Shown here: positions 1 through 24,322 of the stretch, piece after piece
Layout: each line of letters begins with the position of its first letter
How positions within the stretch are numbered: position 1 is the stretch's first letter
DNA from: Candidatus Altimarinota bacterium
Lineage (GTDB): Bacteria > Patescibacteriota > Gracilibacteria > BD1-5 > UBA6164
Reading direction: 5' to 3'
DNA length: 64,000 nucleotides
NCBI GenBank assembly: GCA_028713225.1
Contig: JAQTOS010000001.1
Span: forward strand, 186,001 to 250,000
Position numbers and translations under genes: made by a program
The notes under the pieces: generated by a model
The model's input: the letters and a program-made list of their open reading frames with translations, nothing else
Database searches by the model: none
What the model was told of the DNA's origin: nothing

Positions 1-2157
1 GAAGATGACGCATTAAACAATTTTACAAATGTTTTTGGTTCTCTTGGAAAAGAAGATAAAGCTATAATGCAGGTAGTTGTAAAACCAGTTTCTTCAAATT
101 GGAATACAAAAGCTAAACATGCAGCAGGTCTTGTTGCAAAATGACAATATACAAAAAAAGCAAGATTGCCAGTTCTGGATATTTTTTGGAATCCTATTGT
201 TACTATGATAGAAGGTCCAGATAAGGCAATAAAAGACTCTAATGCGCCAGGAGCTAGTTCAGGAGATTCATATAAAATCTTTAATCAAGCTGAAACAGAG
301 GCTCAAAAAATAATGTGAGAAACTGCGGCTCAACCAAGTTTTAAAGGATCTATTAGAATATTTGTTTCTAGCCCTTCAGCAAAATCAGCTGATACTGGAG
401 TACATTCTATTATTGCAGCTTCAAGTATTTTTACTGATGAATATAACAATTCTCTAGACAATCCACAATTGATAGAAGATTTATTCCCATTTATATTTAC
501 TCCAATTAGATATTTTGCATTTAGATATAAACTTGTTTGAATGTTTCAAAATGTTTCAGTTTATTCAGCTGACGAATTGTCTACGCTGTACCATTTACCT
601 GATATAAATTATAATAAATCTCCACTTATACAATGGCTTGATTATAAGAAATTAGCACCACCACATAATCTAAAAACTCCTCATGAACCAATTATGCTTG
701 AGGAAAAATTCAAAATTTGAGAAAAAGAAGTTATAGATACTGAAACTGGAGAGAAAAAAATGGAAGACATTTTTGAAACAAAAATGGTTCATAGACAACT
801 TTGAGGTTTTCCTACATTCAAAGATTGAGCACTTATGTGACGGAATGAATATAGAAATAAAAGACTTCCAATCTATTTTATGAGAAAAGATAGATGAAGA
901 CACCATTATATTATTTGAAAATCTTGAGGTTGAAAATCGGTTTTCATATCATATATGGCTAGACAAGATCTCCGGGCTGGAGATGGACTTTGTATCATAG
1001 ATCCACATGGAGATTTGGTTGAGGATACTCTTGTTTATACACCAAAAGAAAGAGCAAAAGATGTAATAGTTTTTGATCCATCAGATGATGAAAGACCAAT
1101 GGGGTTAAATATGCTTGAAATTATAGCAATAGATCCTATTGGAAGAGCTAGAGAAATGGATAGAGCAGCTATTGATGCTACTGAAATTTTTATCAAAATA
1201 TTTGGTGATGAAGTTTTTGGTCCTAGAATACAACATTACTTTAGAAATGGTTGTTTGACTCTTATGGAAGATGAAGAAGATGGAGGAACTCTTATAGATG
1301 TACCTAGACTTTTTGTAGATGATGCTTTTATGAAATATAAAACTTCAAAAGTAAAAAATCCAGTTGTGAAATCTTTCTGGGAACATGAATATGCTTCAAC
1401 TTGAGATAGAGAAAAACAAGAAATGATACCTTATTTCTCTTCTAAATTTGGTCCATTTATTACTAATACTACTATAAGAAATATTATTGGACAACCAAAA
1501 TCTGCTTTCAATTTGAGAGAAATTATGGATAACCAAAAAGTACTTTTAGTTAATCTTTCAAAAGGTAAAATTGGAGCTTTAAATGCACAGCTTTTGTGAT
1601 TGATATTTGTATCAAAAATTAATATGGCTGCGATGAGCAGAGCTGATATGCCAGAAGACCAAAGAAAAGATTTTTTCCTATATGTTGATGAGTTTCAAAA
1701 CTTTGCAACTGAAACTTTTGGAGAAATATTATCTGAAGCCAGAAAATATCACTTAGCGCTTATTATGGCTCACCAATTTATTGCACAAATTTGATGAAGT
1801 GGTGCTAAATCTAAATGAGATAAACCAAGTATTAAAGATGCAGTTTTCGGTAATGCCGGAACAATTATGTCTTTCAAAGTTGGTGCCGATGATGCTGAAT
1901 ATTTAGAAAAAGAATATGCTCCACTTTTATCTCAACAAGATATTATAGGAATTGCAAACTTTACAACTTATGTAAAATTGAATATAGATAATGCTACAAC
2001 TAGACCTTTTGATATGAGAACTATTTGGGATTCAAGTTATAAAAATCCTAAAGCTGCAGAATTAATCAGAGATTATTCTAGAAAAAAATATGGTAGAAAA
2101 AGGAAATATGTTGATATGGAAATAGAAGCAAGACTAGGAATATCTAGAGCTGAATAA
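1..2157 (+). CDS. VirD4/TraG-like type IV secretion ATPase (5' partial)
   Basis: Open from the window edge to TAA when TGA is read as Gly (718 residues visible). Walker A GKSGGGKS lies at 916-939, with three of its four Gly encoded by TGA, followed by a DPHGDL motif and a Walker-B-like FFLYVDEFQNF (1672-1704). The IDPHGDL, DEFQNF and late GNAGTIMSFKVG motifs are typical of the large VirD4/TraG/HerA-like ATPases found next to pilin-like genes in Patescibacteria. Family knowledge: such proteins couple ATP hydrolysis to DNA or protein transfer at the membrane. It is followed by three exported membrane proteins on the same strand, supporting a secretion or pilus role (inference). The N-terminus is outside the window, and no VirB4 is visible. 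Confidence 0.85.
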
Positions 2158-2168
2158 AAATTAATCTG

Positions 2169-2194
2169 TAGTGACCACAGGCCTGTGGTCACTA
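2169..2194. repeat. 26-bp perfect loop-free palindrome
   Basis: TAGTGACCACAGG is followed directly by its exact reverse complement, just after the ATPase stop codon. No T-run follows, so it is not a classical terminator alone; a separate hairpin lies 40 bp downstream. It shares its TAGTGA/TCACTA ends with the palindrome at 35899-35942, which has a different core. Confidence 0.85.
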
Positions 2195-2233
2195 TGAAAT
2201 ATAAAACATGTTTTATACAAAAACAAAAAAAAT

Positions 2234-2261
2234 AAAAAAGAGAAATTGATTTCTCTTTTTT
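2234..2261 (+). terminator. Intrinsic terminator after the ATPase gene
   Basis: A 13-bp stem (AAAAAAGAGAAAT with its complement), 2-nt loop, ends in a T-run. Placed between the ATPase and the next same-strand gene. Confidence 0.7.
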
Positions 2262-2307
2262 ATTTGCTATAATAAAGGCAATTTTAAAATATACATAAAA
2301 AATACTC

Positions 2308-3396
2308 ATGAGAAAAATACTTCTTTTTTTAATTTTGATATTTTCATTTAGTTCTGCTTTAACTTATGCAGATACTCGAGTTAATGCTGCATGATGACTG
2401 GATTCTGATTATGATGGAGTTCCTGATAGTGTAGATAAATGTCCAAATACTCCGGCTGTAGAAGCTCATTTAGTTGATGCTGGATGATGTGCTATCGATA
2501 CGAAACAAACTTATGCTAATCCAACTGGTTGAAGTAATGAAGTAGGAGATAATATCAAAACTGGTTGAGCAAATAATCAAAATTGAGTTGTTAATAATCT
2601 TATGACAAACTTCAAATGAGATGAATTTTTTTGAGCAAGTCAATGATGAGAACAAGGAATATTTTATTTCATAGTTAGAATAGCTAAGGACTTAAAAGAT
2701 TTATTTTTTGTTATAGTTTCTGTATATCTAATCATTTCAGTTTTGATGATATTTTTTGCTGCAAATACTGAAGAGCAAATATGAAAATTTAAAAAAGCTA
2801 TAGTTTGGTCGACTGTATGAATAATGGTTATGCAAACAGCTTATGCTTTTACTAAATCTCTTTATGATAAATGAGTAAGTCAATATGCTGCTACAAATTT
2901 CATAGCAGATATTGTTTATCCACTTATTCATTTACTTGAACAATTGGCTGCATTTTTCTTTTTGGCTGTTGCTATATATTCTTTTTTCAGACTTGTTACT
3001 GCAAATTGAGCAGAGGATAAAATTAAGCTATGAAAAAATACTATAATTCAAGCAATAATCTGATTTATAGTTATTAAAATTTCTGGGGTTGTAGTTTCAA
3101 ACATATATGGGCATGTAAATTGTGATTCATTAAATCAAAATTGTTTAATAAATGGTAATACAGAATGAACTCTTTGAGTTGCTATAAGTTTGATAAATTG
3201 GTTAAATGCATTCATTTGAATTTTGGTTGTAATTATGACTATATATGCAGGATCAAAAATAATGTTATCTTGATGAAATGAAGAAGATGTAAAAAAATGA
3301 AAAGCTATAATAAAATACATATTTATATGACTTTTATTACTTGCAACAAGTTATTTGATACTAACTTTCTTTATTATTCCTGAATCTAAAATTTAA
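2308..3396 (+). CDS. Exported multi-TM pilin-like protein with one thrombospondin type 3 repeat
   Basis: 362 residues with TGA as Gly. An N-terminal signal peptide (hydrophobic residues about 4-20) is followed by the Ca-binding repeat DSDYDGVPDSVDKC (residues 32-45), then a Gly/Asn-rich stretch and several hydrophobic segments. The C-terminal part has the pattern of VirB2/TrbC-like membrane proteins: TM, a short loop with GGNEEDVKKGK, TM. Twelve nucleotides separate it from the next gene. The context with the VirD4-like ATPase suggests a surface or channel component of a type IV secretion-like system; the substrate is unknown. Length far exceeds a simple VirB2 pilin, so it is probably a fused or duplicated form. 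Confidence 0.7.
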
Positions 3397-3407
3397 TCTA
3401 AAAAAAT

Positions 3408-4370
3408 ATGCGCAGTGAAACAAGTACTCTTGGGGTATATACTAAAATAATAACTATTGTCTTTAAGAAAATATTAATTTTTATCTCTTTGCTTTTTGCA
3501 TTATTTGCATCTAATTATACTTTCGCAGGAGTTATTGATATTCCAGCTGGAGATTGAGTTTCTAAATTACAAGGAGTTTCTATGGCAGCTTCAACTAGTG
3601 ATAATTTCACAGACAATGTAAATAATATCGGGAAAAATATACTTAGAACTTTTAAGCTTATTATATCAGCTTTGATGGTTGTTTATCTAGTTTATGTGTG
3701 AGCAGAAATGATAATGGCTATGTGAAAAGATGATGAAGCACTTAGCAAATCAAAAAGACAATTACGGTACGCTCTTGTGGCTTTTCTTTTTATAAATATT
3801 CCGGGGACTATTTATGATTCACTTCATAGACAATGAGCTGTTAACTTAGATGTTACAAATAGAAATGGGCTTAGTTCTTGGACAGATGTCAATAATAGTG
3901 CAAATGTATTTATAAATCCATTTAATTTTGGTTACACTATAGATGATTCTATTTTATGATTTATAAAAGTTACTATTTTTATTATAGCTGTATTTATGTT
4001 TGTTTTTGAATGAGTAAAGATAATGACAGCAAGATGAAGAGATGACAAGTTAAAAGAAGCAAAATCAAAACTTTTATATACAATTTTAGCTTTGGTTTTC
4101 GTATGAGTAATAGATGTATGGAAACAAGTAGCTTTTTCTTGAAGTATAGCAGATTGAAAAAACTTATTTGATAATATAGCAAATCTTTCACTTTTCTTTG
4201 CAGGACCAGTTGCTATAGTATTTTTGATTTTAGCAGGTTACTATTATGTGACTTCTGGATGAAATGAAGAGAAAGTAAAAAAAGCCAAGAGTATAGTAGT
4301 AAACACAGTTATCGCTACGCTTATACTTCTAGCTTCATACACTTTCCTACTTGATTTAGCTACTTTATAA
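3408..4370 (+). CDS. Multi-TM type IV secretion-associated membrane protein
   Basis: 320 residues. It begins MRSETSTL, followed by a hydrophobic signal-like stretch ending near TFAG, then about five further TM segments. Two copies of a TM/charged-loop/TM unit (loops with MAMGKDDEALSKSKRQL and SGGNEEKVKKAKS) resemble VirB2/TrbC-like pilin modules. The first 20 nt of the gene are identical to the start of an unrelated membrane protein gene at 34877. Twelve nucleotides separate it from the following pilin-like gene. Function inferred only from topology and neighbours. Confidence 0.65.
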
Positions 4371-4382
4371 TTTTTACACAAC

Positions 4383-4790
4383 ATGAAAAAAATAATATTA
4401 ATTTTAGTTCTATGATTTTCTTTATTTGCTTGAAATAGTGTTTTTGCTGCTACTTGAGATACTTGATGAAACTGAATAGAAGTAAAAGTAACAGAAAAAA
4501 TTCCTTGAGCTGAATGTGATTGAGCTCCTGGAGCTTATACTTGTACAGTAAAACCAGGATTTGGAACTGTTATGCAACTTATGGGTTGAATAATTAAATA
4601 TTTTACATTTTTGGCGAGTCTTGGTTGAGTACTATTTATAGTAATAAACTGACTTATGTTGTCTATGTGAGGTATGTGATGAAGTAAAGATGAAATAAAA
4701 AAGAGAATTACTATGACTATTTGATGATTAATTCTTTTGCTATTATCAGGATTGATTTTGCATAGTATTGCTCCGTGGATTTATCAATAA
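4383..4790 (+). CDS. Small VirB2/TrbC-like pilin subunit candidate
   Basis: 135 residues. A signal peptide ending around VFAATG is followed by a Cys pair (AECDG, TYTC) and two TM helices separated by a short loop MGGMGGSKDEIKKR. This length and two-helix layout match VirB2/TrbC pilins better than its larger upstream neighbours do. Most Gly codons are TGA. It is the last gene of the cluster, before a bidirectional terminator shared with mutL. Role as major subunit is inference. Confidence 0.65.
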
Positions 4791-4793
4791 AAT

Positions 4794-4829
4794 AAAAAGA
4801 AGTATGAATTATCTTTCATACTTCTTTTT
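4794..4829. terminator. Bidirectional terminator between convergent genes
   Basis: 15-bp stem AAAAAGAAGTATGAA with its complement, 6-nt loop, T/A-runs on both sides. The mutL stop codon (4809-4811) lies in the loop and its last codons form one arm. Confidence 0.85.
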
Positions 4830-6695
4830 TAGTTCTTCTAGATTTATTTCAAATGCTACAGGTCTGCCATGTGGACAAGTTCGAGAATAGTCTAAAACTG
4901 CATCATTAAGCAATTTATTCATCTCGAATATAGACAATTTATTACCGAATTTTATTGCTCGTCTACATGCTGTATAAGCTAGTATTTTGTTTCTTATTTC
5001 TTCAAGAGTTTTTATTTTAGCAGTTCAATTTTCCAAATCTTGGATTATAGACAAAAATACTTCTTTTGCATTTTGTTTGTTTATAAAATCTGGAATAGAA
5101 TTCAGGATTAAACTAGTTCCAGCCATAAATTCAAAATCGAATCAGATGTCGACAAAAGTGTTTTGATTGTCTATAATTAGTTCTCTTTCTTTTGCTGTAA
5201 GGCTAATATTTTCAGCGATGAGTAATCTTTGAGATTTTATTTCTCCTTTTTTCTTATAGAGTTTTTCATAAATTATTCTTTCAGCTAAAGCATGTTGATC
5301 TAAAATAAGCATAGATTTATCGGGTGATTCTACTATTATGTATGAGTTAAACATTTGTCCAACTATTCTACCAAGCTTAGTATCATTTAAATCATTAGAT
5401 GGATAATCGGTACCGGTACTTGTAGCCTCGGTAGTACCGGTACCTAAAATCTCTCTTGAAAAATTCATACTTGCTTCTATGCTAGATTGAGCTGGATTTA
5501 AATTTACTTCTTTGTAAGGAGAAAATTCTCTGAAATTTGTTCCAGAAGGAGTATAGTATTTTGGAGAGTTATTCTGATTACTACCCCATCAGTCCTGCGG
5601 ACAGCTTCCCTTAAGTCTAAGGGAAGCATTTTCTGTTCTACTCCCTTCCATTAGACTTAAGGGAAGGGTTGGGGATGGGTTATTTATATAATCTCATCCC
5701 ACAACACTCACTTTCTCTAATTTATCTGCAACTGCATGATAAAAACATCTGAAAACTTCTGATTCTGAAGCAAATCTGATTTCTTGTTTTCTTGGATGAA
5801 CATTTACATCTATGATAGTTGGATTGATTTCTAGGTTTAATACATAGGCAGGATATGATGAATGAGGAATATATCTCAAATAAGCATCATTTATGGCTTT
5901 GTAAATTAACTGACTTTTTATTATTCTGTTATTTACGAAAATTACTTGTCTATTTCTATTTTGGAAACTTACACTTGGGCTAGAAATATATCAACTTACT
6001 TTCATTCCAGACATAGTAAAATCAATATCCAGTATATTTGAAGCAAATTCATCTCCATAAATATTGTAAATTCTTGTTTTTAAGTCTTCATTTGCTTTAT
6101 ATTTAAATATTTCTTTTCAGTCGCTTATAAATTCAAAACCTATTTGAGGATATGAAAGAGCTATATTTTGCATAAATTCTTGAATATTTGAGTATTCAGT
6201 CCTAGCTTTTTTTAGATAATTTAATCTAGCAGGAGTATTAACAAACAAATTATTTACTTCTATTTTTGTTCCATTTTCACTTGCTGTTTTTGTTATTTCT
6301 TGCTTTTCTCATCAATTAATTATAAGCAAATTTCAGAAATCTGAAATACTTGTTTTTGAAGTGATTTTCATTTCTGAAACAGAAGATATAGAAGCTAAGG
6401 CTTCTCATCTAAACCCGAAAGTCATTACATTATATAAATCATCAAGAGATTTTATTTTGCTTGTTGTGTATTTTTCTGTTGCTATTTCCAAATCTTCTTT
6501 ATCTATACCAGAACCATTATCAGTGATTATAATAGATTTTATTCATCATTCTATAATTTCTACTTTTATTTGAGACGCACCGGCATCTATAGAATTTTCC
6601 ACAAGTTCTTTCACAACCGAAACTGGTCTTTCAACCACTTCTCCGGCAGCGATTTGATTAGTAAGATTTTTATCAAGTTTTATTATTTGCGACAT
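4809..6695 (-). CDS. mutL: DNA mismatch repair protein MutL
   Basis: 628 residues. The N-terminal GHKL ATPase domain shows [12 protein letters not shown] and [13 protein letters not shown]; the C-terminus has the metal-site motif CPHGRP. MutL couples MutS mismatch recognition to strand nicking; CPHGRP is found in the endonuclease-type MutL C-terminal domain. The interdomain linker contains two palindromic insertions (5409-5444 and about 5583-5680) that stay in frame, adding low-complexity peptide such as [20 protein letters not shown]. The start codon lies 2 nt downstream of the stop of a small membrane protein gene, so the two are co-transcribed. No mutS is in the window. Confidence 0.93.
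5409..5444. repeat. Inverted repeat inside the mutL linker
   Basis: GGTACCGGTACT and its perfect complement are separated by 12 nt. The region is in frame with mutL and clearly GC-richer than its surroundings, as expected for an inserted element. Confidence 0.75.
5583..5680. repeat. Palindromic element inserted in frame in mutL
   Basis: A 16-bp perfect inverted repeat (CTTCCCTTAAGTCTAA at 5605-5620; complement at 5651-5666) is flanked by further partly complementary ACCCCATC and GGGGATGGGT. Base composition differs from the AT-rich host gene. Reading it in the mutL frame gives no TAA or TAG. Resembles in-frame palindromic elements known from Rickettsia (RPE) in behaviour, not in sequence. 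Confidence 0.75.
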
Positions 6696-6697
6696 AT

Positions 6698-6916
6698 TTA
6701 TTTACCAATTATAGATTTTATTTTTTCTAGTATAATATTTGGAATTTGTTCCCACATAGCAAGAAGTGCATTTACTTTTTTAACGTATTCCATAGATTCG
6801 TTTACTACTCATAAAATTTTTATAAGTCTAAATAAAGCAATAACAAGCAAAGTTCAAACAATAGAAGTAAATATACTTAATACGATATAAAGTATATCAA
6901 GAGTAGATAAAATCAT
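6698..6916 (-). CDS. Small single-TM protein upstream of mutL
   Basis: 72 residues: an N-terminal hydrophobic helix (about residues 5-35) followed by an amphipathic charged tail ending KIKSIIGK. No family recognised. The stop is 2 nt before the mutL start, implying translational coupling. A promoter (6951-6978) lies just upstream on the same strand, so this is the first gene of the mutL transcript. Confidence 0.65.
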
Positions 6917-6950
6917 AAGTACAAATTATTAGTAACTAAAATTTTTCTGC

Positions 6951-6978
6951 ATTATAATGGTTTAAAATAAAAATTCAA
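6951..6978 (-). promoter_or_regulatory. Promoter of the small membrane protein-mutL operon
   Basis: On the minus strand: TTGAAT, 16-nt spacer, TATAAT. About 35 nt upstream of the 6916 start; divergent from the rplS promoter. Confidence 0.65.
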
Positions 6979-6985
6979 AAAAAAT

Positions 6986-7013
6986 TTGATTTTATTAGTT
7001 TTTTGTATAAAAT
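6986..7013 (+). promoter_or_regulatory. rplS promoter
   Basis: TTGATT, 16-nt spacer, TAAAAT, about 35 nt before the rplS start. No Shine-Dalgarno follows; the leader is A-rich. Confidence 0.65.
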
Positions 7014-7048
7014 CTCCCGCGTAACTTTAAAAAATAATTATATCAAAA

Positions 7049-7405
7049 ATGAGCGATGTAGCATTAATAAGAGAAATTCAATCTGAATTCGTAAAAGGTG
7101 ATAGACCAGTAATTAAAACTGGAATGGAAGTAGAAGTACACCAAAGAATTATGGAAGGTACTAAAGAAAGAACTCAAAGATTTAAAGGTCTTGTTATAAA
7201 AATGTCTGGAAAAACTCCACTAGAAAAGACTTTTACAGTTAGAAAAGTATCTGGAGGTTTTGGTATCGAAAAAATATTTCCAGTTAATTCTGCAAATATC
7301 GAAAAAATCGATGTTCTTAGACAATTTAAAGTAAGAAGAAAAAATATCGGATTTATTAAAACTCTTACTGGTAAAGCTGCTAGACTTAAAGAAGTTAGAA
7401 AATAA
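7049..7405 (+). CDS. rplS: Large ribosomal subunit protein bL19
   Basis: 118 residues, full length for bL19. The core GMEVEVHQRIMEGTKERTQRFKGLVI and KVSGGFGIEKIFP segments are characteristic. bL19 sits at the 30S-50S interface. All ten Gly codons are GGN; no TGA is used, unlike most neighbours. Monocistronic by position: promoter at 6986 and a divergent gene upstream. Confidence 0.96.
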   Translation: MSDVALIREIQSEFVKGDRPVIKTGMEVEVHQRIMEGTKERTQRFKGLVIKMSGKTPLEKTFTVRKVSGGFGIEKIFPVNSANIEKIDVLRQFKVRRKNIGFIKTLTGKAARLKEVRK

Positions 7406-7632
7406 TAGAAATATCTTACTTTTTATCCAAAAAGTAACAAAAGAATTTAGGGGGACAAAGTTGTCTCTCTTTTTTTGTTTTCAAAATTCTCTTTGATTTC
7501 TATTTGTCCCCCCCCAAAACCCCCAATCTATAAAGTATGTTTTTTGGTAATGGACCGAGTTTTTGTTAATTTATATAGTTTTAGTTCCATAAAACTATTT
7601 TTAGAAACAAAAAAAATCCCCGGAGGGATTTT
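7406..7632. other. rplS-gltX intergenic region with inverted repeat
   Basis: Contains GGGGGACAAA (7450-7459) and its complement TTTGTCCCCC (7503-7512) separated by about 43 nt, including a C8 tract, and a short terminator at 7611-7634. No coding potential seen. The G/C-tract repeat could be the rplS terminator or a small RNA. Confidence 0.45.
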
Positions 7633-7634
7633 TT
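7611..7634. terminator. Bidirectional terminator, rplS/gltX
   Basis: AAAAAATCCC, loop CGGA, GGGATTTTTT. The gltX stop codon (7633-7635) overlaps the distal arm. Confidence 0.7.
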
Positions 7635-9264
7635 AGCTTAATCTTTCAAAAACTTTATCTTTTCAAAGTACTTGCATAATGTAGTACATATCGGGAGTTT
7701 TTGTTTTTCCTGTTAGGAAAAGTCTTAAAATTGTTGTTACTTCTACGATGCTTCCTTTGAAATTTTCGGGAGCTTTTTTGTATTCTTTTATATTTGATGC
7801 AAATCAGATAGAATCACAAAGTGCTTTAACTTTTTCAAACCAAATTTCTTTTGAATCTGATGAGTCATAAGTCGCTTTAAAACCGCTAAGTATATTTGAA
7901 ATATCAGCCTCATTTAAGTTTGGATAAGTTTCTTTTAAAGAAGCTTTATCAAATGAGTATCATTCGTCGAAAAAATATTCAGTTTCTCATTTTACATCTG
8001 ACCATTTTCCTATATCTTTTCTTGTTTTTTCTCCATTTCTTTCTATAGAAAAAATACTCAAAAATTTTTCTTTGTTGTTTTTCATTAATGAAGCTAAATT
8101 TTTATCAAATTTCTCAGCCCAAACTAGACTTCTAGTATAGATTTCTTCTGATGTCATTCTAGAAATTATTTCTTTGCTGATATTATCAAGTTTTACGAAA
8201 TCAAACAATGCTCAGCTAGAATTTGATAATCTTTCAAAACCTATTTTGAAATCAGTTATTGGAGCATTTAGATTAGCTTTTCTCCAGTCTTCAAAATCAG
8301 AATTAGCAAGATTAGTTAGATATTCCAAAATTGATTCTTTTGTATAACCATTTTCATCATAATAAGACATTGAAGCTTCAGGGTCTTTTCTTTTACTTAA
8401 TTTTCTTTTATTTCCATTATCAAGTTTTTGAATAGGAGCAAGATGTCCATAACGGGGAGCTTGCCACCCCATCATTTCAAACATTTGAAGATGTAGCGGA
8501 GTTGAAGCTAACCATTCATCTCATCTAATTACATGAGTTGTTCACATCAAATAGTCATCAACTATATGTGCAAAATGATAAGTAGGAAGTCAATCAGCTT
8601 TCATAATAACTATATCCATATCGTTTTCACTTGTTTCAATAGTTCATTTCAATAAATCTTGGTATTTTATTTTTTTATTATAGTTTCCAGCAGATCTAAG
8701 TCTGATAACAAAAGGAGTATTTTTCTCTAGTTCAGCTTGTATATCTTCTTCTGTTGCATTTCTCCATTTTGCCCATTGTCCATAATAACCAGGTCTTTGA
8801 CTATATTCTTCTTGAGTTTTTCTTGTTTCTTCTAATTCTTCACTAGAACAAAAACAAGGATAAGCAAGTCATTTTTCCACCAAATCTTTTACGAAACTAG
8901 CATAAATTTCTTGTCTTGCGCTTTGTTTATATGGTCCATAATTTCAAATTTCTTTTCCACTCAAATCTTGTCATTCATCAATTTTGATTCCATAATAATC
9001 CAAAGCTTCAACTACTAATTCTCCAGCTCCTTCAACTTCTCTTTTTTTATCAGTATCTTCAATACGAAGCATAAAAATACCACCACTTTGGTGAGCAAAT
9101 CTTTCTGAAACCATTGCAGTATACAAAGTTCCAATATGCATAAATCAAGTAGGACTTGGCGCAATTCTTGTAACCATAGCTCCTTCCGGTAAATTTCTCT
9201 TTGGATATCTTGCCAATATTTCAGTTGTTGTTTCTAGTTTATTTGGAAAAAGTTTATCTATCAT
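7633..9264 (-). CDS. gltX: Glutamyl-tRNA synthetase
   Basis: 543 residues. Class I signatures: RIAPSPTGFMHIGT (HIGH variant, with the PSPTG Gly encoded by TGA) near residue 34, and KLSKRK (KMSKS variant). LRIEDTD follows as in GluRS. Charges tRNA-Glu, and possibly tRNA-Gln if a GatCAB system is used (not visible here). Single-gene unit between the 7611 terminator and the 9353 palindrome. Confidence 0.94.
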
Positions 9265-9352
9265 AATTTTTCTTTAAATATTATTTATTCGGCCGCTATT
9301 ATACAGATTTAGTCCAGATTTCAAAATCGAAGTTTTAGCAATTTCATAAAAG

Positions 9353-9388
9353 CAAAAACTCCCCGGCGATATCGCCGGGGAGTTTTTG
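9353..9388. terminator. 36-bp loop-free palindromic terminator
   Basis: CAAAAACTCCCCGGCGAT is followed directly by its exact reverse complement, ending in a T-run on both strands. Lies upstream of gltX and downstream of the 9404 minus-strand gene, whose transcript it would stop. Confidence 0.8.
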
Positions 9389-9403
9389 GAGAAAGATTAA
9401 GGA

Positions 9404-11569
9404 TTATTTAGTTTCAGGTTTAAAGAAATCATCTCATAATTTATTTATAACTGCATCTATTTTAATTTCATCATCTTTTCAATTTAATCAAGCTTTTTGT
9501 AAAGATGCTTTAAGTCATTCTTTACTTATACTATCTCATCAAAATTCTGATTTATTATCTTTAATATGTTTACTAAAAGCATTAATATCTCAAATTGAAT
9601 AATCTGTTGTTCAATTATTCGTATTACTATTTATTCAAACAGTAGTTAAATTATTCAGATTTATAGTTGTATCTCAGTCAACTTTAGGGATTAAGTAAGA
9701 ATTTCATAAATCTTTAATAGCACTATCGACTGAAGCATATCAATTTAATTTATTTCATTTTTGATTGAAGATATCTGCTCAGACTCTTTCAGAGTTTTTA
9801 TCCATTTCTATCAGAAGATTTGCTACTGATTCTCTATCTCAAAGTTTTACTTTATCTATTTTATCTTTATCTATTTTCATTTCAGTTGCTATTTTTTTCA
9901 AAGATTCAATTCATTGAGTACTATTTGCTAATTGTTGAGTATCTTTAACTTCTTTTAATAAATCTTGAGTTAAGCCACTAAGTTGTTTAATGTCTCATCT
10001 AGCATTATCTATTCTAGGATTTATTTCAGTTGCTTTTTGTGTAACCTTATCTCAGTTTCAAAAAGTTTTATTATAAAAATCAGTTCATTTTCTATTTTGA
10101 GCGCTTTCAAAAGCTCAAGATATATTACTTCAAACTGTACTCATACTAGCAGCACTTTGTCCACCTGGGAAAATAGGAGCATATTGTGGTAATTTTGAGA
10201 CAGTTTTTCATATACTTGTTCCAAAGTCAGCTATTGGTTTAACAACGCTTTCTGTTATACTAGAAGAGCTAAGGGCGGCCATAACAACCATCCAAAGTAT
10301 TGCAATACCAAAAAGTTGTATAAGAAATTGTCATACTAGGTCTCATCCTCGTCCAAGTATACTTAGAGCTGTAGTTCATTCTGATCATGCAGAGTCTCGT
10401 TTATTACTAGCTCAAACTATATTAAATTGTATACCTGCGATATTGAATCAAGATCCAGTAGTCGCTCATCAAGTTTTAGCTCCATCGTTATCTTGAGTAA
10501 ATCAAGCAAGTCAATGTCATGCAGAAATTAGAAATATAAATCAAAATGACAATGCTGCTGCTACATATACAGGAACAAAAGCAAGTCATATAAGTTTAGG
10601 AATAGTTAATATTTCAAGTTTTTTCATTCAAGAAGGTAGTGATTTTCCGAAAAAATACATAAGTCAGAAAATTGGAGAAAACATAGTATATAACCATAAA
10701 TATATTCATCTAGTAAATAGTGCTAAAGCTATTGCTCAAAGCAGAATTAAATAGGCAATTACAAAAGTAATATCAACTATTACCTTTAGTCATAAATCAA
10801 AGATAGATTTTATTCAAGATCAAATTTCTCAGCCACTAAGTTGGTCACTTGTTAATTGAGTTAAATGTCATATGTTTATAAGTCAAAATGAATAAAATGC
10901 TACAACTCATCCAATACTATCTTTTGAATTCATCATTTGATCTAAAGTTGTTACCTTATCTTTATTACAAGTAACTCAAGATCAAGTAGCAGACATATCT
11001 ACAGTACATTCGTTTGGGATTTTTACTTGTTTTAATATGCTAGCTTGTGTATCAGATCATTTAAATATATCATATGGTAATTGTATAACAGAGGCTGTTA
11101 ATATACTAGATATAGATACTATGAATTGTACAATAAACCATGTAAAAGGAACTATAATTATTCATACTATTAACTTCGGAAGAGCTGTTTTAAGTTGATA
11201 ATTATTATCTCAATGTCATATTATATTCATAAAAGCAATTGATATAAGTAGAAATGCAAATACAAAATAAACTATATTTGAAATCATTACCCAAATATTT
11301 TTTAATATATCATTTAATCAAAATACTGTCCCACTAGTCCATCCTGGTTCAAGAAATTTCATAACAAGCCCTGTCATTAAACCAAGTCCACTTGTTACAA
11401 CTGACATCATTCAATTAACCCATTTTACTACATCAGATCAATCAGCGGGAGTAGCATCAGCGGCAAAAGCATTATCAGCTGAAAAAAGTAGTACAAAAAA
11501 AGCTACAAAAATTATATTATTTTTGTTTTTTAATATTTTTGTTTTTATCTTGCTAATCAAATTATTCAT
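9404..11569 (-). CDS. Large polytopic membrane protein (VirB6/TrbL-like candidate)
   Basis: 721 residues with TGA as Gly. Signal peptide (IIFVAFFVLLFSADNAFAAD), then roughly eight hydrophobic segments over residues 60-480, including a Gly/Ala-rich helix pair and FTRGIYLWLYTMFSPIFGLMYFFG. A C-terminal soluble region of about 240 residues is rich in Lys/Asp/Asn. The layout of many TM segments followed by a hydrophilic tail resembles VirB6/TrbL-type T4SS channel proteins common in CPR clusters; the sequence itself carries no motif I can name. It is the last gene of a minus-strand group of giant membrane/coiled-coil genes. Confidence 0.6.
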
Positions 11570-11671
11570 TTTTATTTTTGTTATTTTTAAAAACTTTTAT
11601 ACATCATATCATATATTTTTTAGTTTTTCAAATTCTGGACTTGATTTTTTGATAATTTTATTTGTAAGACA

Positions 11672-11700
11672 AAAAAGACCTTATTTATTAAGGTCTTTTT
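11672..11700. terminator. Terminator
   Basis: 12-bp stem AAAAAGACCTTA and its complement, 5-nt loop, A/T-runs on both sides. Downstream of the 39-residue minus-strand ORF. Confidence 0.7.
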
Positions 11701-11707
11701 GTTGTAC

Positions 11708-11827
11708 TTAAGCCATATCTAGATTAGCAAATCTTTTTGCTTTTGATTCTCTAGCTAGTTTTACAAGTTGTTGTTTTCTTTCGCTCTTAACATTTTTTAG
11801 AGCTTCTATATTTGTTTTTCTTAGCAT
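11708..11827 (-). CDS. Small basic protein, 39 residues
   Basis: MLRKTNIEALKNVKSERK and onward, ending FANLDMA: highly charged, Lys/Arg-rich and predicted helical, with no Gly. It has its own downstream terminator and sits between two large membrane-protein genes. It could be a ribosome-associated or nucleic-acid-binding peptide; no family recognised. Confidence 0.5.
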   Translation of the reverse strand: MLRKTNIEALKNVKSERKQQLVKLARESKAKRFANLDMA

Positions 11828-11894
11828 AATTGTATAAATTATTTTCTAAACATGGGAAGTTTAGTATAAAAAATTAATATTGTCAAGTTGGGTG

Positions 11895-14762
11895 TTAAAC
11901 TTTTTTTACAAATTCAATTTTTCATTCATATCCAAATGATTCTAAGTATGATTCTATTCTAGGATCTTTTATAAGAATTTCTCATAAAGTATCTTTATAT
12001 GTTTTACTTGATACATAAAATTTTCAGTTTTCATATTTAAAAACCATATTTCAAGCAGGTTCTATAAAAGATTGTTTTGTACTAAATATAAGTTCTAGGA
12101 AACTGGCTTTTTTGTTATCATTTAATCAATTAAACCATTTTTTTGCTTCAGTTTCTTTTCATTTTATAACATTTCAATCTTTATCTAATATTCACTTTTT
12201 TTCTAATTCTTGGAAATCATTTCCTATAGAATTAAAATTTTCGTAAGCATATAGAGAACCAGCAACAATAGGAACTCCTAATAATAAAGCCATTTTTCAA
12301 TATCTAGAAGCTTTAGCTATTTTAGAGATTTCAGATGCATCTTTTTCTCATCATTTTAACATTCATTTTGTTTCATTCCATACTTCTCACCATGTTCATT
12401 TAGCTTTTGCTACATCTATAATGTTTTTAGTCATTTTTCATGAGTGTATAGCAAATTTTCACATATCAGTTATAGGACTTACTACATATTTTAATGTATG
12501 AAATAACACATTAGTACCTCATTTATAACTACGTATTAATCAGTATCCATCAACTCATATTAAGACACTTCATGCTGTAGCTGATGCTACATTGAACCAT
12601 TCTACCTTTTTAGTTTCAGGATCAAACATATTTCAAGCTGATAATATTAACATAGCAGGTCAAGCAACCCTTAACATCATTAATGTCCCCATTGCTGTTC
12701 ACATCCATTTTTGTCATTCTTCAGCTGTTGCAAATGATAATCAAATACAAGTAAATCCGGTTACCCCTGGAAATAGTAATCTAAAAAATTCAGGGGAATC
12801 TGTTGCTAATTTTGACATTGCTTGTAATTTTGTCAATTGTTCAGCAGGAGTTCATTCAAGTATTACTTTATTAGTATCTCTTTTTATATTTGCGAAGGCC
12901 TCGATTTCATCCATTTTTTTAAAAGATCTGAAAGGTCTTATATACCAATGTTCTCATCAACGAATTCTAGATTTTATATAGTTAAAAGAATCATCTAAAT
13001 CTTGATTCAACATAGATATTGCTTTTGCTTTTCATTCATATACAGATGCTGATATATAATCTTTTGCAGCACTTCAAGTAACTCATTTATAAGTATAGCT
13101 TATGTGTTTGGCATCAGGAATATTATTTTTTGCATATGATCTAAGCTCATCAAAATTTTTAATTTTATTAATTCATTCATTAAATGATTGAGAGTCTATT
13201 TTTAAATCTAATATTTCTTTTTTAGCTAGTTCTATATCAGTTTTAGAATGTTGTGATTTTTCAAGAATATTTGCTACTTTATAATATTTTTCAAGTTCTA
13301 TGATTTGTTTTTTAAATGCATTAAGTGCATTTGATAATTCATCGTCAAAATTTCAAGTTATAGATTTTTCAATATCTCATAATATTTTTATTTGTGAGTC
13401 AAAGTCTGATTTCAAAGCACTCATTCATCATTTAAATCATCCAGTTCAAGGACTAAATGATTCAATAGCCAATCTGCTGCTCATTTGTAATATTCATGAA
13501 ATTACTCAGAAAAATATTCAAGCTTCTCTATAAAGTAATCATAAAGTAATCATTTTTTCTGCTTCAGATTTTCATTGCATTTCTTTTTTAAATTCTTCTA
13601 TACTTTCTCATCTAACTCAGAAAGGAGTCATAAGAGTTATTGATTTTAATCATGAATCTACTATTTTAAATCAAATATCATTCATTGATATTATTCATTT
13701 TCATATTAAGGTCATAGAAAACCATAACATACTACTAAATGAGGAAAGAGCAATTCAAAACATATCAAATCAACTCATAGGTTTTCATTGTATATATTGT
13801 TCAAATACTTCAGCAAAATTAAATTTAGATTTGTAATCTTTTAATACTTTTGTAAGTTCAGCTCTTTTTTCTGGGCTTAAATCTACATTGTATCTTTTTT
13901 GAATATCATCTACCATTCGTTTCTCCATTTGAGCTTCAATAGCCTGTTTTCACTCTTCATCAAGAATATCATTTTTAAATAATTTATATTTATCTCATAA
14001 TATAGATTTTAAATATAATATATCTATTTTTTGTCCTTTAGCTTTATCTTCCTCTATTTTTTTTATTATATCTGGACTAAATATATTTGGATCATTCAGG
14101 GCTTTATCTAATTTGGCTTTAATTATAGGATTATTTTTTATATTTTCAGGAATGATAAATCATATTTTTCATGTAATAGCATTTTTTATTTCTTTTTGAG
14201 TTGATGGATTTAGAGTAGTATTTGCTGCGGCTTCTTTAGCTGTTGAGGCTTCTTCTTTCAATTTTTCAGTATCAACAGAAAATCAAAAAAGTCATCCTAA
14301 AGTTTTAAAAAGAAATCATAAAATTCCACCAATTAATGGAATTGCAGATAATTGTTCTACGATTTTAGTAAAACCTGCATTTGTTCAAACTTCCTTTGCT
14401 ATAACACTAGCTTTATCTCATAAATCTTTAGCTGCTTCTTTGGCTCATTCTACTCCAGTTTGAGCTTTTTTTGCGGCAGCTTCTAGTGTTTTTTGAGTTT
14501 CATTTTTTAGTTTGTCTTGAGATTGTTCACTTTTAAAAAGAGTATTTGCTTTTTCTTTTAAAAACTCTTTTGTTTTGGCCAATTTTTCAGTTTCAGGTAA
14601 TTTATCCATTTCTTCCTTGAATTTTTTTAATTCATTTCTAGATATACTGATTGGCTGAGCTAATTCTTCCATTCATTTTGGATTTATTCAGAATTTTTCT
14701 AAATCACCAAGAGAATTGATGTTTTCGATTGTATCTGGTTTTTCAGTGTTTATTGCCGTCAT
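11895..14762 (-). CDS. Giant coiled-coil/membrane protein, function unknown
   Basis: 955 residues, no signal peptide. Residues 1-300 are Lys/Glu/Ala-rich, with a long coiled coil and an early hydrophobic segment (VEQLSAIPLIGGILGFL). Later hydrophobic stretches lie near FGIALSSFSSMLWFSM, EAGIFFGVISGIL, GTAMGTLMMLRVAGPAMLIL and KMALLLGVPIVAG. No catalytic motif is seen. The neighbouring 14861-17715 gene has the same size and architecture, suggesting paralogy or a two-component structural assembly, and the downstream 9404 gene is a polytopic membrane protein. Confidence 0.65.
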
Positions 14763-14819
14763 AATTTATAAAAATTAAGTATATTTGCTTCATTTTAACA
14801 TATTTATTCTTTTAAAGCA

Positions 14820-14854
14820 AAAAATAGAAAGATTTTTTAAGTCTTTCTATTTTT
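14820..14854. terminator. Terminator between the two giant genes
   Basis: 13-bp stem AAAAATAGAAAGA and its complement, followed by T-runs. Separates 14861-17715 from 11895-14762. Confidence 0.65.
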
Positions 14855-14860
14855 TGAGTT

Positions 14861-17715
14861 TTATGCTGCTTTTTTAGAGTTTCAAAGTCATAGCTTTTCA
14901 TCTACTTCATAATATTCTAAAATCATAGAATTTATTACTCATAAGTACATAAATTCTAAATAATTTGTAGCCATATTTGCAGGATTAACTTCCATTGCTT
15001 GTCAATTATATTTATCCCACATAATTTCAGCTCGAGTTGGTGCAATAGCATAAACTCAAACTTTTCAAATTCATGAACCAAATCATGTAATTGGATTTAT
15101 AGAATTTGGTAAAACCCAATTTATATTTTTATCTCGGAATAATATAGCTTTTGTAGCCTCTCAGAATCATTCAGAAGCTTTAAAGTTTTTAACTATATTA
15201 TATGGAGTTATGATATCATTAAAAATAGGTTTTGCTATTTTATTTTTTCAGAATTTATAAATTCAACCTGGTCAATATGGGATACTTTCCATAAAATTAT
15301 CTGCAGCTGTTCACATTTTTCAAAATTTCGTATCAGAAAGTTTTGCAAAGTATGATTTAGACGTATCTTCAGCTACTTTGTTTACATCAATTCATTTAGT
15401 CTTTTTAAGTAATTCTTCGAAATTATCACTATAAAATTTATTTAATTCAGTTTCATTAGTGATTTTTCTCCATGTTCCGTTTTCTTTTACTAAAACTTCA
15501 TTCTTAGAAACTTTATATTTTCATAGAAAATCAAAAAATCAATCTTTTAATTTTATAGTTTCTTCTCATAAATTAGCTATATTTTGTTTAGCTCTAGATT
15601 GTAGAAATACAATTTTATCTTCATCTTTAATTTTGTCTAAAATTTGTTTTTCAGAATATAATATATCATCTCATTCTATTTCAAATTTTCAATCAGCTCT
15701 TTTTTTATAAGTATTTTCTCAAATTGTAATACTTTTATTTTCTTTTAATTCTTTTTTAAACAAGTCAGTAAATTTATTTTTTGCAAATTTAGAAATATTT
15801 CAAGCATTATCCAAAATTTCTTCACTGGCTCTAGCTTCAGTTTTAATAGTTTCTTCTGTAGCTTTTGTTGATTTCGCTAATTTTTGTAAAATATTTTCTA
15901 TTTCTTTTCCAAAACTTTGCTGAATAGATAATTCTCTATCACTAATTTTTTCATTTTTTGCTATTTTTTTTGCTATTGATTCTAATACATCTTTTGGTAT
16001 TTCTCATGTTTTAGTAAATGTGTCAAATATATCATCAGAAATAGTTTCAGGAATTTTAGATTTTAATAAATCTTTAGCAATTTCTCTATCTAGTTTTTTG
16101 ATTTCTTTTCATCTTGCAGCAGCATCAGTAATTCATTTTGCATCTAATTCTTTATATAGATTTTCATATCTTGGAGCATATTTAGAAAATTCTCCTTCTG
16201 GTAAACCATTTTTTCAATTAACTCTGGCATTTTCTAATTTCTTTGTTTCACTTATAATTCCTCTTCATTCTTTTGTAGAAAATGATTTTTCATTTGTTTT
16301 AGCTCATTCTGAAGAAGTTTTTTCAGTTTTTACTTCCGTTTCAGCAGTTTTTTTAGTAGACTTCTTTTCTTTAGCAGCTTTTTCTCGAGCTTTTCTTAAG
16401 TCGTTTGCTTCTTTACTATGTTCTAATCATATTTGTCATTTTTTTGCGGCAGTTTCTCAAATTCAGAAAAATCTGTCTTTAAAAAATGATTCCATTTTAT
16501 TAAATTCAGCTAGTTCTTCTGGTTTTAGTATTTTTGCAAATTTTGCTATTTTATATCATTTTGTAGCTGCTGTCATTCAAGGGACTAATCATAGTACTGA
16601 TAATGCTCATTCAAGATATGATTGTTTTCAATTATTGAATCTAGGATCTACAAGTCATGATTTTTTAAGAATTTGCCATCAAGCATCTTCATTTCATGAT
16701 AAAAATTCCTTTATATTATATCCATCATAAGCTGTTCAAATAACTAGAGATGGAGCTGTTCATACTCAAGTAAATCATGCTAAGTCAACGGCTACCATAG
16801 CTCACATAAGAGCCATATATTGAATCATATAATTTTTCTTCTTTCAATTTTCATATATATCAACTTTACCGTCAGGATACTTTATTGTTCCATTGTATAA
16901 AGTTCTTAATCATTTGTCGTTTTTAATAAAATCTCAGCTCATTATACTTCAATCACTAGTTTTTATATTTTGAGCTATTTCGTGTTTAATTTCTTTTGTT
17001 TTTGGTTCAGCTTTTAGTGTAGTAGTAGGATTTGTAGTTTTAGGATGGTTTTCAGGAGTATTTTTATCTGGAGTATGTTCAGGTTTATGATTTTTTTAGG
17101 AGTATCAACAGTTTTAATTCCAACAATTTTTTCCAAAGCTTTCATTGTTTTTTTTCCAAACCATCAATCAGAATTAATTTTTGCTCAAGAACTTATTAAC
17201 AAGTCTTGAAGATTTCTTACTCGTATATCACTAGAACTAATTAAAGTATTTCCTAAAGCTTCTTTTATTTCTTTTTGAGTTTTATCATTTTCATCTAGTT
17301 TTCCAAGTACAGTATTTATTCTTTTTGAATAAGTTTCTATGTGTTTTTCATTATATTTTTTTTGAGAATCATTATTAACTTCTGATGGTTTAACTAAAGT
17401 TCATTTTACTTCTTGAGTAGAATCAACGCTTCCGTCTATTATTGTTTGTTTTTCTTCACTATAGTTTGATAAAAGTTTTTCAAAATCTTCTTTTTGACTG
17501 TTTAATGTATTTACTGCAACAAAATTACCAGCAGGGAAATTTTTAACTTCTCTGTCTAATAATTTAATTATTTCTTCAAGTTGAGCCTTGCTTGCTTTTT
17601 CTGATTTAATAACTTCTAAAATAGACTTAGCTTCATCTAATTTTTTAGAATCTATTCAATTTGATGCTAAGTTTTGTAATTTTTCTATTTGTGTTTTTAT
17701 TTGTATTTCACTCAT
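14861..17715 (-). pseudogene. Giant coiled-coil/membrane protein with frameshift at an A7 tract
   Basis: The frame from the 17715 ATG runs to the A7 tract (17091-17097 on the plus strand) and, unshifted, stops at 17014 (233 residues). Adding one A joins it to a second open frame ending at 14861; the junction then reads PKKNHKPEHTPDKNTPENHP, matching the low-complexity linker on both sides, for about 951 residues in total. The N-terminal part is coiled coil; a TM pair follows (MIQYMALMGAMVAVDLAGFTG). The long C-terminal part alternates coiled coil with Gly-rich hydrophobic patches. Same size and style as the downstream 955-residue protein. Could be a true pseudogene, a sequencing or assembly error, or slippage that restores the frame. 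Confidence 0.6.
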
Positions 17716-17828: not shown

Positions 17829-18731
17829 ATGTTACCAAGAATTTTAAAATATGCAGTTAAAAATATACTTAGAAATAAATTTCTTTCTATTTCTTCTATA
17901 CTTGTTCTTACATTATTAATATTCTTTATTAATATTCTATTTGTTTTGCATAATGTTACTTTGAAAGTAATGAATTCTATAAATGATAAATTAACAATTT
18001 CTCTTTATTTAAAAGATACTTATGACAAAAATTCAACTGAAACTTTGGGGCTTTTAAATGATATATCAAGAGATTTTCCAAATATAAAAATAGACTTCAA
18101 ATCAAAAGACCAGGTTATGGAAGAACTTAAGAAAAAAGATGAAGAACTTATTAGAATATTAAATTCTGATTGAGTAAATCCACTTCCAGCTACTATTTCT
18201 ATATCAAATATTAAGTTAAATGATTATGAATGACTTGATTCTATAATAGAAAAAAGAATGTTTATCTTTATTGATTCAAATAAAGATGCTAAAAATAATG
18301 TATCAAACTACAGGGATCAATATGATAATATTATAAAAGTTATACATACTATTAAGACTCTTCAAATGGGGCTCTACTTTATTATAGGGGTTTTCGTTAT
18401 TTCTATATTTGTTATAGTTTATAGTATTATAAGTAACTTTATATTCTATTATAGAGATGAAATATATATAACTAAACTTGTTTGAGGTTCTAATATATTT
18501 ATATATTGACCATTTTCTCTGCAATGAGTTATATATGTATTATTATCTTTTACATTTAGTATAGCTTTGTTTTTGTTGCTTTTACAAAATATCAATTTCT
18601 TATTTTCTTCATTTTCATATAAAGAATTCGTTTTTAATAATGCAAGTATGAATTTATTTTTGATTGAATTAGTAGTTTTCTCTAGTCTATGAGCATTGAG
18701 TGGCTATTTTTCAAGTAAAAAATATATATAG
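17829..18731 (+). CDS. ftsX: Cell division protein FtsX
   Basis: 300 residues, the family's usual size. One N-terminal TM helix follows MLPRILKYAVKNILRN, then an extracellular domain of about 130 residues, then three C-terminal TM helices; this is the FtsX/MacB-type permease layout. FtsX with the ATPase FtsE activates cell-wall hydrolases at division. No ftsE is adjacent. The stop is TAG. Divergent from the giant gene cluster, and followed by a tRNA pair with its own promoter. Confidence 0.85.
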
Positions 18732-22044: not shown

Positions 22045-22485
22045 ATGTTTATTGAAATTGCTAATGCCGCTGCTGTTACAACAACTCCACTTTTTACATC
22101 AAGAATGGAATTAGGAGATTTTATACTTCTTGCTATTTCTCTACTTGTTTTTTTTGCTTGAATCTTCTCTATAGGATATATTCTACGGGGATGATTATTA
22201 CTTATACTTTCTGGTGGAAAAGATGATAAAATGAAACCAGCTATCAATTCTATAAGATATGCAATAATTTGATTTATCGTTATAGTTTTATCACTATACA
22301 TATTTCCTAGAATAGCAGGTCTTCTTGGTTTAGATGTTTCTAAATATTCTAGTCCAGATAAAATATTTAAACAAATCAAAACACTTTGAGATAAAGTACT
22401 TTGAACTCAGTCATCAACAGAATTAGATATTAATTCTAGTGATACTACTCCTGCTCAATTGCCTGATGATTTCTCAAATTTATAA
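22045..22485 (+). CDS. Two-TM VirB2/TrbC-like pilin candidate
   Basis: 146 residues. Two TM helices (FILLAISLLVFFAGIFSIGYIL and YAIIGFIVIVLSLYIF) are separated by GGLLLILSGGKDDKMKPAINS, the same helix/charged-loop/helix plan as the 2308-4790 proteins. No clear cleavable signal. The C-terminal tail of about 45 residues is polar. Likely another subunit of the secretion or pilus system, although it is 17 kb away. Ends 2 nt before a long palindrome. Confidence 0.6.
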
Positions 22486-24320: not shown

Positions 24321-24322
24321 TT

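What the first reader, a model, noticed from the sequence alone, without database searches (positions are those of the whole stretch)
9404..17715. Three giant membrane/coiled-coil genes of unknown function
About 8 kb of one strand encodes 721-, 955- and about 951-residue proteins, the last two similar in plan. None carries a known catalytic motif. This is the largest undescribed block in the window and may be a structural part of a secretion or attachment machine.
Basis: inference. Interest (0 to 1): 0.7.

Follow-up and report, generated by a model that had tools for sequence, protein, structure and literature searches.

The report
Shuffled giant proteins beside VirB6-like gene
In a tiny, probably host-dependent bacterium, two very large proteins of unknown function sit next to a likely part of a protein-transfer machine, and related species carry reshuffled versions built from swappable pieces, which suggests that they act where the cell meets its host.

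Summary
The genes are real when TGA is read as glycine, but the "951-residue" protein is two overlapping frames (233 aa and a 744-codon open frame). Gene 1 (721 aa) is a very divergent TrbL/VirB6-like type IV secretion (T4SS) protein, found in 93 of 99 relatives; a 2025 survey reported VirB6 scarce or absent in Gracilibacteria. Genes 2 and 3 match no known family beyond weak wall-binding modules and are not detectably homologous to each other. In relatives such giants sit beside ftsX (37 of 42 loci read); in three genomes ftsX and queA are only 120-181 bp apart. Within one genus, flanking proteins are 73-99% identical, yet gene 3 is a mosaic of N, middle and C blocks in different combinations, and gene 2's core switches together with gene 3's middle in the four genomes compared. 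The giants lack signal peptides and mostly have marginally hydrophobic segments. In the window's genus they lie directly upstream of the VirB6-like gene, as unrelated large genes do in 11 of 13 outgroup loci. Best reading: polymorphic host-contact proteins, probably T4SS-linked, perhaps its cargo. Export and function are unproven.

The parts
9404..11569 (-). Gene 1, 721 aa, TrbL/VirB6-like polytopic membrane protein
   Evidence: Family in 93 of 99 relatives; PF04610 at E 1.8e-4 in the G307 homologue, below cut-off; profile comparison 95.9%; six strong hydrophobic segments
11895..14762 (-). Gene 2, 955 aa, giant of the gene-2 family (N block constant within a genus, core in types)
14307..14363 (-). 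Only segment of gene 2 over KD19 1.6 (residues 134-152, 1.8)
14861..17095 (-). Gene 3, second frame (744 open codons; first ATG ORF 14861-16942)
17014..17715 (-). Gene 3, first frame (233 aa), N-terminal part
   Evidence: no homologue among the 101 giants compared
17091..17097 (-). Run of seven A inside the overlap of the two frames of gene 3
17131..17220 (-). Weak peptidoglycan-binding-like match (residues 166-195; PG_binding_3 E 0.005, PG_binding_1 E 0.018, both below cut-off)
16442..16918 (-). Block of gene 3 shared with a giant of G318 only (E 1e-18)
15317..15850 (-). Block of gene 3 shared with a giant of G308 only (E 4e-32)
17829..18731 (+). ftsX-like gene (name recalled), the fixed flank used as anchor
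   Evidence: Matches in 87 of 99 relatives
67..2157 (+). VirD4-like ATPase of the T4SS
   Evidence: PF02534 41.1 bits, cut-off 20.1
2308..4790 (+). Three T4SS_pilin (PF18895) genes: 2308-3396 and 3408-4370 over cut-off, 4383-4790 below it
22045..22485 (+). Further T4SS_pilin gene (27.5 bits, cut-off 26.6)

Best explanation
Gene 1 is a long-diverged VirB6/TrbL-like channel subunit of the Gracilibacteria type IV secretion machine. Genes 2 and 3 are a pair of giant, modular, polymorphic proteins that work at the contact with the host cell and are linked to that machine, most likely as very large proteins that it exports or displays. They are made without a signal peptide; segments of intermediate hydrophobicity would let them stay soluble at first and enter a membrane late; wall-binding modules in some members would hold them at a cell wall; gene 2's core and gene 3's middle behave like a matched pair; and alleles are exchanged between species, presumably because hosts, competitors or phages keep selecting for change. 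Shown: the VirB6-like relationship (moderately), the mosaics, presence and absence, co-switching in four genomes of one genus, lack of signal peptides, wall-binding modules in some members, adjacency to gene 1 in this genus and of comparable genes in outgroups. Inferred: export by the T4SS, insertion into a membrane, physical pairing, host-contact function.
For: Mosaic blocks with conserved flanks; closest FtsX pairs differ in middle type in 3 of 3 cases; no extra copies for two queries in six genomes; occupied and empty sites within one genus; genus mate G286 has unrelated giants; giants directly upstream of gene 1 in 2 of 2 genomes of the genus and a signal-less ORF of 466-1008 aa among the three genes before gene 1 in 11 of 13 outgroup loci; no N-terminal hydrophobic stretch in 99 of 101 and intermediate hydrophobicity; SH3 or peptidoglycan-binding matches; VirD4-like ATPase and pilins in the window.
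Against: No export shown and no known T4SS signal found. In most other family genomes gene 1 lies elsewhere, mostly behind a gatB-like gene, with the giants at ftsX; three order-level loci show no clear case. Three genomes lack giants beside ftsX yet have gene 1. The outgroup upstream genes have KD19 1.41, nearer to soluble proteins, and no similarity to the giants was shown. 14 of 100 giants reach KD19 2.1 or more. Type 1-like gene 2 cores also occur in genomes without a type 1 middle, and three genomes with a type 1 middle show no gene 2, so the pairing rests on one genus. The window's own gene 3 is split.
Confidence: 0.42

Rival explanations
1. The giants are wall-anchored surface or coat proteins of the bacterium itself, varied to change attachment or to escape phages, and unrelated to the T4SS.
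For: SH3 and peptidoglycan-binding modules in some members; giant membrane-located proteins are reported for Vampirococcus (PMC8080830, passages); in most family genomes they are not beside gene 1.
Against: No signal peptide or strong anchor in 99 of 101; adjacency to gene 1 in this genus and of comparable genes in outgroups.
Confidence: 0.25
2. A polymorphic toxin system: gene 3 is the toxin and gene 2 its matched immunity or carrier protein.
For: Modular exchange and co-switching of two neighbouring proteins; one gene 3-type row has a weak Ntox33 match (E 0.0045, 1 of 32).
Against: N, middle and C blocks all vary, not the C-terminus alone; gene 2 is far larger than usual immunity proteins (recalled); no toxin domain over a cut-off.
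Confidence: 0.13
3. Cytoplasmic or membrane-bound scaffold proteins that evolve fast by drift.
For: No signal peptide; 26 of 101 giants have no hydrophobic segment over the threshold.
Against: Drift does not give blocks that are mostly 56-91% identical beside unrelated ones in reticulate combinations; wall-binding modules would have no use in the cytoplasm.
Confidence: 0.12
4. Remnants of phage tail tape-measure or internal virion proteins.
For: One of 40 other giants matches TMP_3 at E 0.0073; several weak tape-measure rows in the viral fold search, none significant.
Against: No phage tail genes seen among the neighbours at these loci, which are housekeeping genes or other giants (by size and recalled names); kept at one chromosomal site in many genera.
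Confidence: 0.04

Closest known systems
TrbL/VirB6 (PF04610), T4SS inner-membrane channel protein
   Same: Gene 1: polytopic, alignable over 225 columns with PF04610-matching proteins; sub-threshold Pfam match in a homologue
   Different: Window protein itself not matched by Pfam; own genome has no PF04610 match at E 1; longer variable C-terminal part
T4SS effectors, e.g. the Xanthomonas-type antibacterial X-Tfes (PMC6536674, passages)
   Same: Made without Sec signal as seen here; some giants carry wall-binding modules; a T4SS with a VirD4-like protein is present
   Different: No XVIPCD or other secretion signal seen, no enzyme domain, far larger, no small immunity gene recognised
Polymorphic toxins (PMC3482391, listing only)
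   Same: Exchange of modules between alleles
   Different: All three blocks are exchanged and no toxin domain was found over a cut-off
Giant or hypervariable surface proteins of CPR bacteria (Vampirococcus, PMC8080830; Gracilibacterium 28_42_T64, PMC6851277; passages)
   Same: CPR bacteria, very large proteins, proposed host contact
   Different: Those reports describe adhesion and interaction domains or a PTD repeat behind an N-terminal membrane segment; here none was found and there is no N-terminal anchor

Membership tests
TrbL/VirB6 (gene 1) | Match to PF04610 over the curated cut-off | tested here: inconclusive
   Not in P0001 or at E 1 in 13 aligned members; 21.8 bits against 25.9 in G307; over cut-off only in six-frame matches with TGA read through, inside gene-1 places of G307, G325, G368
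TrbL/VirB6 (gene 1) | Polytopic membrane protein | tested here: met
   Six strong hydrophobic segments
TrbL/VirB6 (gene 1) | Profile similarity to proteins that match PF04610 | tested here: met
   hhalign 95.9%, E 5e-9, 225 columns, three template proteins of which two are over cut-off
TrbL/VirB6 (gene 1) | Function in a T4SS | not testable with these tools
   Only the presence of a VirD4-like ATPase and pilins in the window was seen
T4SS effector (genes 2, 3) | Translocation through the T4SS | not testable with these tools
   No experiment
X-Tfe effectors | C-terminal XVIPCD recognised by VirD4 | tested here: inconclusive
   Not among Pfam matches listed for 86 rows; whether the library holds such a model was not checked
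Polymorphic toxin system | Constant N-terminal and variable C-terminal toxin domain | tested here: not met
   N, middle and C blocks all vary; no toxin domain over a cut-off in the window frames, one weak Ntox33 match in 32 rows
Polymorphic toxin system | Adjacent small immunity gene | tested here: inconclusive
   None recognised by eye; small ORFs were not tested
Phage tape-measure protein | Profile match over cut-off | tested here: inconclusive
   One of 40 rows at E 0.0073; none reported for gene 2 or 3 families at the thresholds used

The most novel reading that the evidence does not exclude
These are cargo, or the host-facing end, of the patescibacterial T4SS: cognate pairs of 800-1500-residue proteins that pass through or dock on a VirB6-like channel and enter the host envelope. 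Their middle modules set partner specificity, and their N and C modules are exchanged between species like interchangeable tips.
Probability: 0.28. Interest if true: 0.85.

Novelty: new variant of a known kind. Interest (0 to 1): 0.62.

Why it matters
What the T4SS of Patescibacteria moves is unknown: a 2024 perspective calls its role in Saccharibacteria completely unknown (PMC11665869, passage), although its genes were essential for epibiotic growth in one species (PMC10633639, passage). A 2025 survey found VirB6 scarce or absent in Microgenomatia and Gracilibacteria and suspected extreme divergence (PMC12102498, passage). The gene 1 family is a candidate for that missing part, and the giants are a concrete, variable candidate for cargo or for the host-contact surface. 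Shuffled alleles between close relatives show which parts change under selection, and make the question testable.

Tried and rejected
Pfam, NCBIfam and PHROG scans of the four window frames gave nothing over a curated cut-off (PHROGs has no cut-offs, best E 0.001). PDB sequence searches with three family profiles gave nothing better than E 0.012. The AlphaFold model of gene 2 (mean pLDDT 49.9, 11 sequences) was not searched. A 500-residue middle stretch of the G314 gene 3 homologue (9 sequences) had pLDDT 56.6 and pTM 0.59; its best Foldseek match was E 0.8 in PDB and E 0.06 in BFVD, and the best VIA Z was 7.3 (rmsd 4.5, 107 residues), within what the tool calls common for helical models. No fold is claimed new.

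A shared N-terminal leader across different giants looked likely by eye, but a profile of 14 gene-2 N-termini found one further giant convincingly (G312, E 2e-4; the other strong hit is a second copy of the G313 protein), so I dropped it. Phase variation at the A run is not specially supported: runs of 7 or 8 A or T are frequent in the giant genes listed. PF19590 matched neither the own genome nor any of 14 controls, so that search says nothing. Gene 2 was found in 1 of 286 genomes drawn over the phylum, the own one. A scan of genome contigs with gene 1 alone found no relative, although one search shows many; short back-translated patterns do not suit a TGA=Gly genome.

Rows dropped before counts: one search listed 149 ORFs of 400 aa or more; I removed the 19 conserved ORFs of about 800 aa beside ftsX (found by an N-terminal motif), all of loci L077, L081, L082, L083, L088 and L096 and a few named ORFs, and replaced gene 3 of the window by its two frames, leaving 101. 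G313 is in that set twice (L047, L118) and a few of the 101 may not be island giants. Of 47 family genomes with an ftsX match I read 42; G292, G317, G321, G329 and G331 were left out because ftsX lay near a contig end. Of 11 outgroup upstream genes counted, 8 were scanned with Pfam (L060, L061; L060, L169, L170, L172, L173, L174, L176) and none reached a cut-off; L171, L175 and L177 were not scanned.
Full report
WHAT IS THERE. The window lies in a 1.24-Mb genome held as 19 contigs. The frames are open only if TGA is read as an amino acid (glycine in code 25). Named relatives are mostly Candidatus Gracilibacteria; one record is labelled Altimarinus, one Absconditabacterales, and some only 'bacterium' or Patescibacteria. 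On the minus strand gene 1 (9404-11569, 721 aa) and gene 2 (11895-14762, 955 aa) are single frames. Gene 3 is not: 17014-17715 (233 aa) and 14861-17095 (744 open codons) are two frames that overlap, with seven A at 17091-17097. The G309 homologue is also spread over two frames. Assembly error and broken gene cannot be told apart here.

GENE 1. A protein search finds it in 93 of 99 relatives, 70 of 72 of the good genomes. Pfam gives P0001 nothing of note, and 13 aligned members show no PF04610 at E 1. Three results point to TrbL/VirB6. The G307 homologue matches PF04610 at E 1.8e-4, below its cut-off. Of five six-frame PF04610 matches over cut-off in 99 genomes, three (G307, G325, G368) fall inside gene-1 places, though scored with TGA read through; the other two (G367, G375) do not, the own genome has no match at E 1, and 5 of 14 controls match at all, one over cut-off (places). 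The family profile aligns to three PF04610-matching proteins, two of them over cut-off, with 95.9% probability over 225 columns. A 2025 survey of patescibacterial T4SS (PMC12102498, passages) found VirB6 scarce or absent in Microgenomatia and Gracilibacteria and suspected extreme divergence; this family is a candidate for the missing part. It evolves fast: 41% identity to genus mate G286, against 74% for FtsX and 96% for EF-Tu. The window also holds a VirD4-like ATPase and T4SS pilins.

A HYPERVARIABLE SITE. Anchoring on ftsX, I read 42 of 47 family loci, the window included. The names ftsX, queA, gatB and EF-Tu are recalled from the sequences, not tested. In 37 of 42 at least one ORF of 400 aa or more lies beside ftsX, often two to five in a row on the strand facing away; in some (for example G294 to G297) these may not be island giants. 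In G302 and G306 the contig ends; the giants of G302 are on another contig (L045). In G316, G322 and G326 ftsX and queA are 120-181 bp apart, while G291 and G309 of the same genus have 6.5-6.9 kb between them. The genus mate of the window, G286, has three giants without detectable similarity to the window's. Gene 2-type proteins occur in 14 genomes; gene 3-type ORFs form a chain of 35 at E 1e-5. Among 101 giants or frames, 223 pairs match at E 1e-3: 24 cover under 30% of the shorter protein, 89 cover 30-70% and 110 cover 70% or more.

MOSAICS AND CO-SWITCHING. In genus g251 (six genomes) pairwise identities are 80-99% for FtsX, QueA and EF-Tu and 73-95% for an FKBP-like and a 1010-aa gene. Gene 3 falls into three blocks: G328 is a/1/x, G314 b/1/y, G320 b/2/y, G325 b/2/x. 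Shared blocks are mostly 56-91% identical, unshared ones mostly 14-41%. G307 and G289 have a third type with other partners. The closest FtsX pairs (G328/G307 96%, G320/G289 93%, G314/G325 92%) differ in middle type in 3 of 3 cases. DNA alignments of the four genomes show the same steps. Searches of the six genomes with two of these proteins matched only at the ftsX site (3 of 6 genomes each), so no spare cassettes were seen. Gene 2 keeps a similar N block in the four genomes, while its core is type 1 in G328 and G314 and type 2 in G320 and G325, in step with gene 3's middle; between G314 and G320 the segments in between are shared while both partners switch. Beyond the genus the support is thin. 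A type 1 middle is found in 8 genomes: five have gene 2 with a type 1-like core (E 3e-28 or better), three (G312, G324, G311) show no gene 2 at the locus or in the genome search. Type 1-like cores also occur in G305, G302, G309, G300, G291 and the window, where no type 1 middle was found, and weak type 2 middles in G303 and G309 do not go with core 2. The window's own gene 3 is mosaic too: one block matches G308 (E 4e-32), another G318 (E 1e-18). The gene 2 and gene 3 families are not detectably homologous.

WHAT THE GIANTS LOOK LIKE. In 99 of 101 there is no hydrophobic stretch in the first 60 residues; at KD19 1.6, 26 have no segment, 52 one and 23 two to four. The strongest segment has median KD19 1.76 (n = 100; 14 reach 2.1 or more), between EF-Tu, QueA and the 1010-aa gene (1.13-1.25) and FtsX or gene 1 relatives (2.79, 2.97). 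Pfam finds SH3_3 in 5 of 32 gene 3-type rows and PG_binding matches in one (the window's first frame) at E 0.1, PG_binding_1 in 5 of 40 other giants at E 0.01, and neither in 14 gene 2-type proteins; G313 is among the 32 rows twice, and the window's match is below cut-off. Structure prediction gave no usable gene 2 model and no fold match for a middle module.

LINK TO THE SECRETION MACHINE. In the window and in G286 the giants lead straight into gene 1 on the same strand (2 of 2 genomes of the genus). In 13 class-level outgroup loci, 11 have a same-strand ORF of 466-1008 aa without N-terminal hydrophobic stretch among the three genes before gene 1 (L060, L061, L169-L177; not L062, and L167 is cut by the fetched stretch). 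Among L169-L177 only the L176 and L177 genes resemble each other. Against the link: in most family genomes read, a gatB-like gene precedes gene 1; three order-level loci show no clear case; and the outgroup genes have median KD19 1.41, nearer to soluble proteins, with no shown similarity to the giants.

INTERPRETATION. Sharp, reticulate blocks between conserved flanks, absence beside ftsX in some genomes and no spare copies fit selection for variety and exchange between species rather than decay. Wall-binding modules make a purely cytoplasmic role unlikely, and the lack of signal peptides makes ordinary Sec export unlikely. A T4SS is at hand, and a 2026 review argues that T4SS effectors with moderately hydrophobic segments can avoid the signal recognition particle and go straight to the T4SS (PMC12981334, passages). 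I therefore favour T4SS-linked host-contact proteins at 0.42, with wall-anchored surface proteins as main rival. Paper searches on Gracilibacteria with large proteins, hypervariation, T4SS, mosaics and polymorphic toxins listed nothing that by title or abstract start describes this site. I read passages of eight papers and no supplements.

Noticed in passing
L067-L075, L078, L080, L085, L088, L092, L097, L098, L118, L119: gene of about 795-800 aa next to ftsX: A conserved protein of about 800 aa with the N-terminal text LLGQNARNL or close to it stands between ftsX and EF-Tu in part of the family and is missing there in others, the window included. Not identified.
   Followed up: no
L096 (G297) 1-10212: An ORF of 3403 aa, open at the edge of the fetched stretch, near ftsX.
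   Followed up: no
window 23010-26374: Two genes in a row that look by eye like a FecR-like protein and a CHASE2-type nucleotide cyclase (recalled motifs; not tested).
   Followed up: no
window 26454-28604: 716-aa protein with a FapA_N domain (PF20250, E 1e-17).
   Followed up: no
L057 (G300) 7947-12414: Two gene 1 homologues in tandem, 723 and 755 aa.
   Followed up: no
L060, L169, L174, L176, L177 upstream of gene 1 homologues: A small ORF (143-197 aa) with a hydrophobic segment also precedes the large upstream gene in several outgroup loci, and some have a mid-sized ORF with a C-terminal hydrophobic segment: gene order seems kept without sequence similarity.
   Followed up: partly
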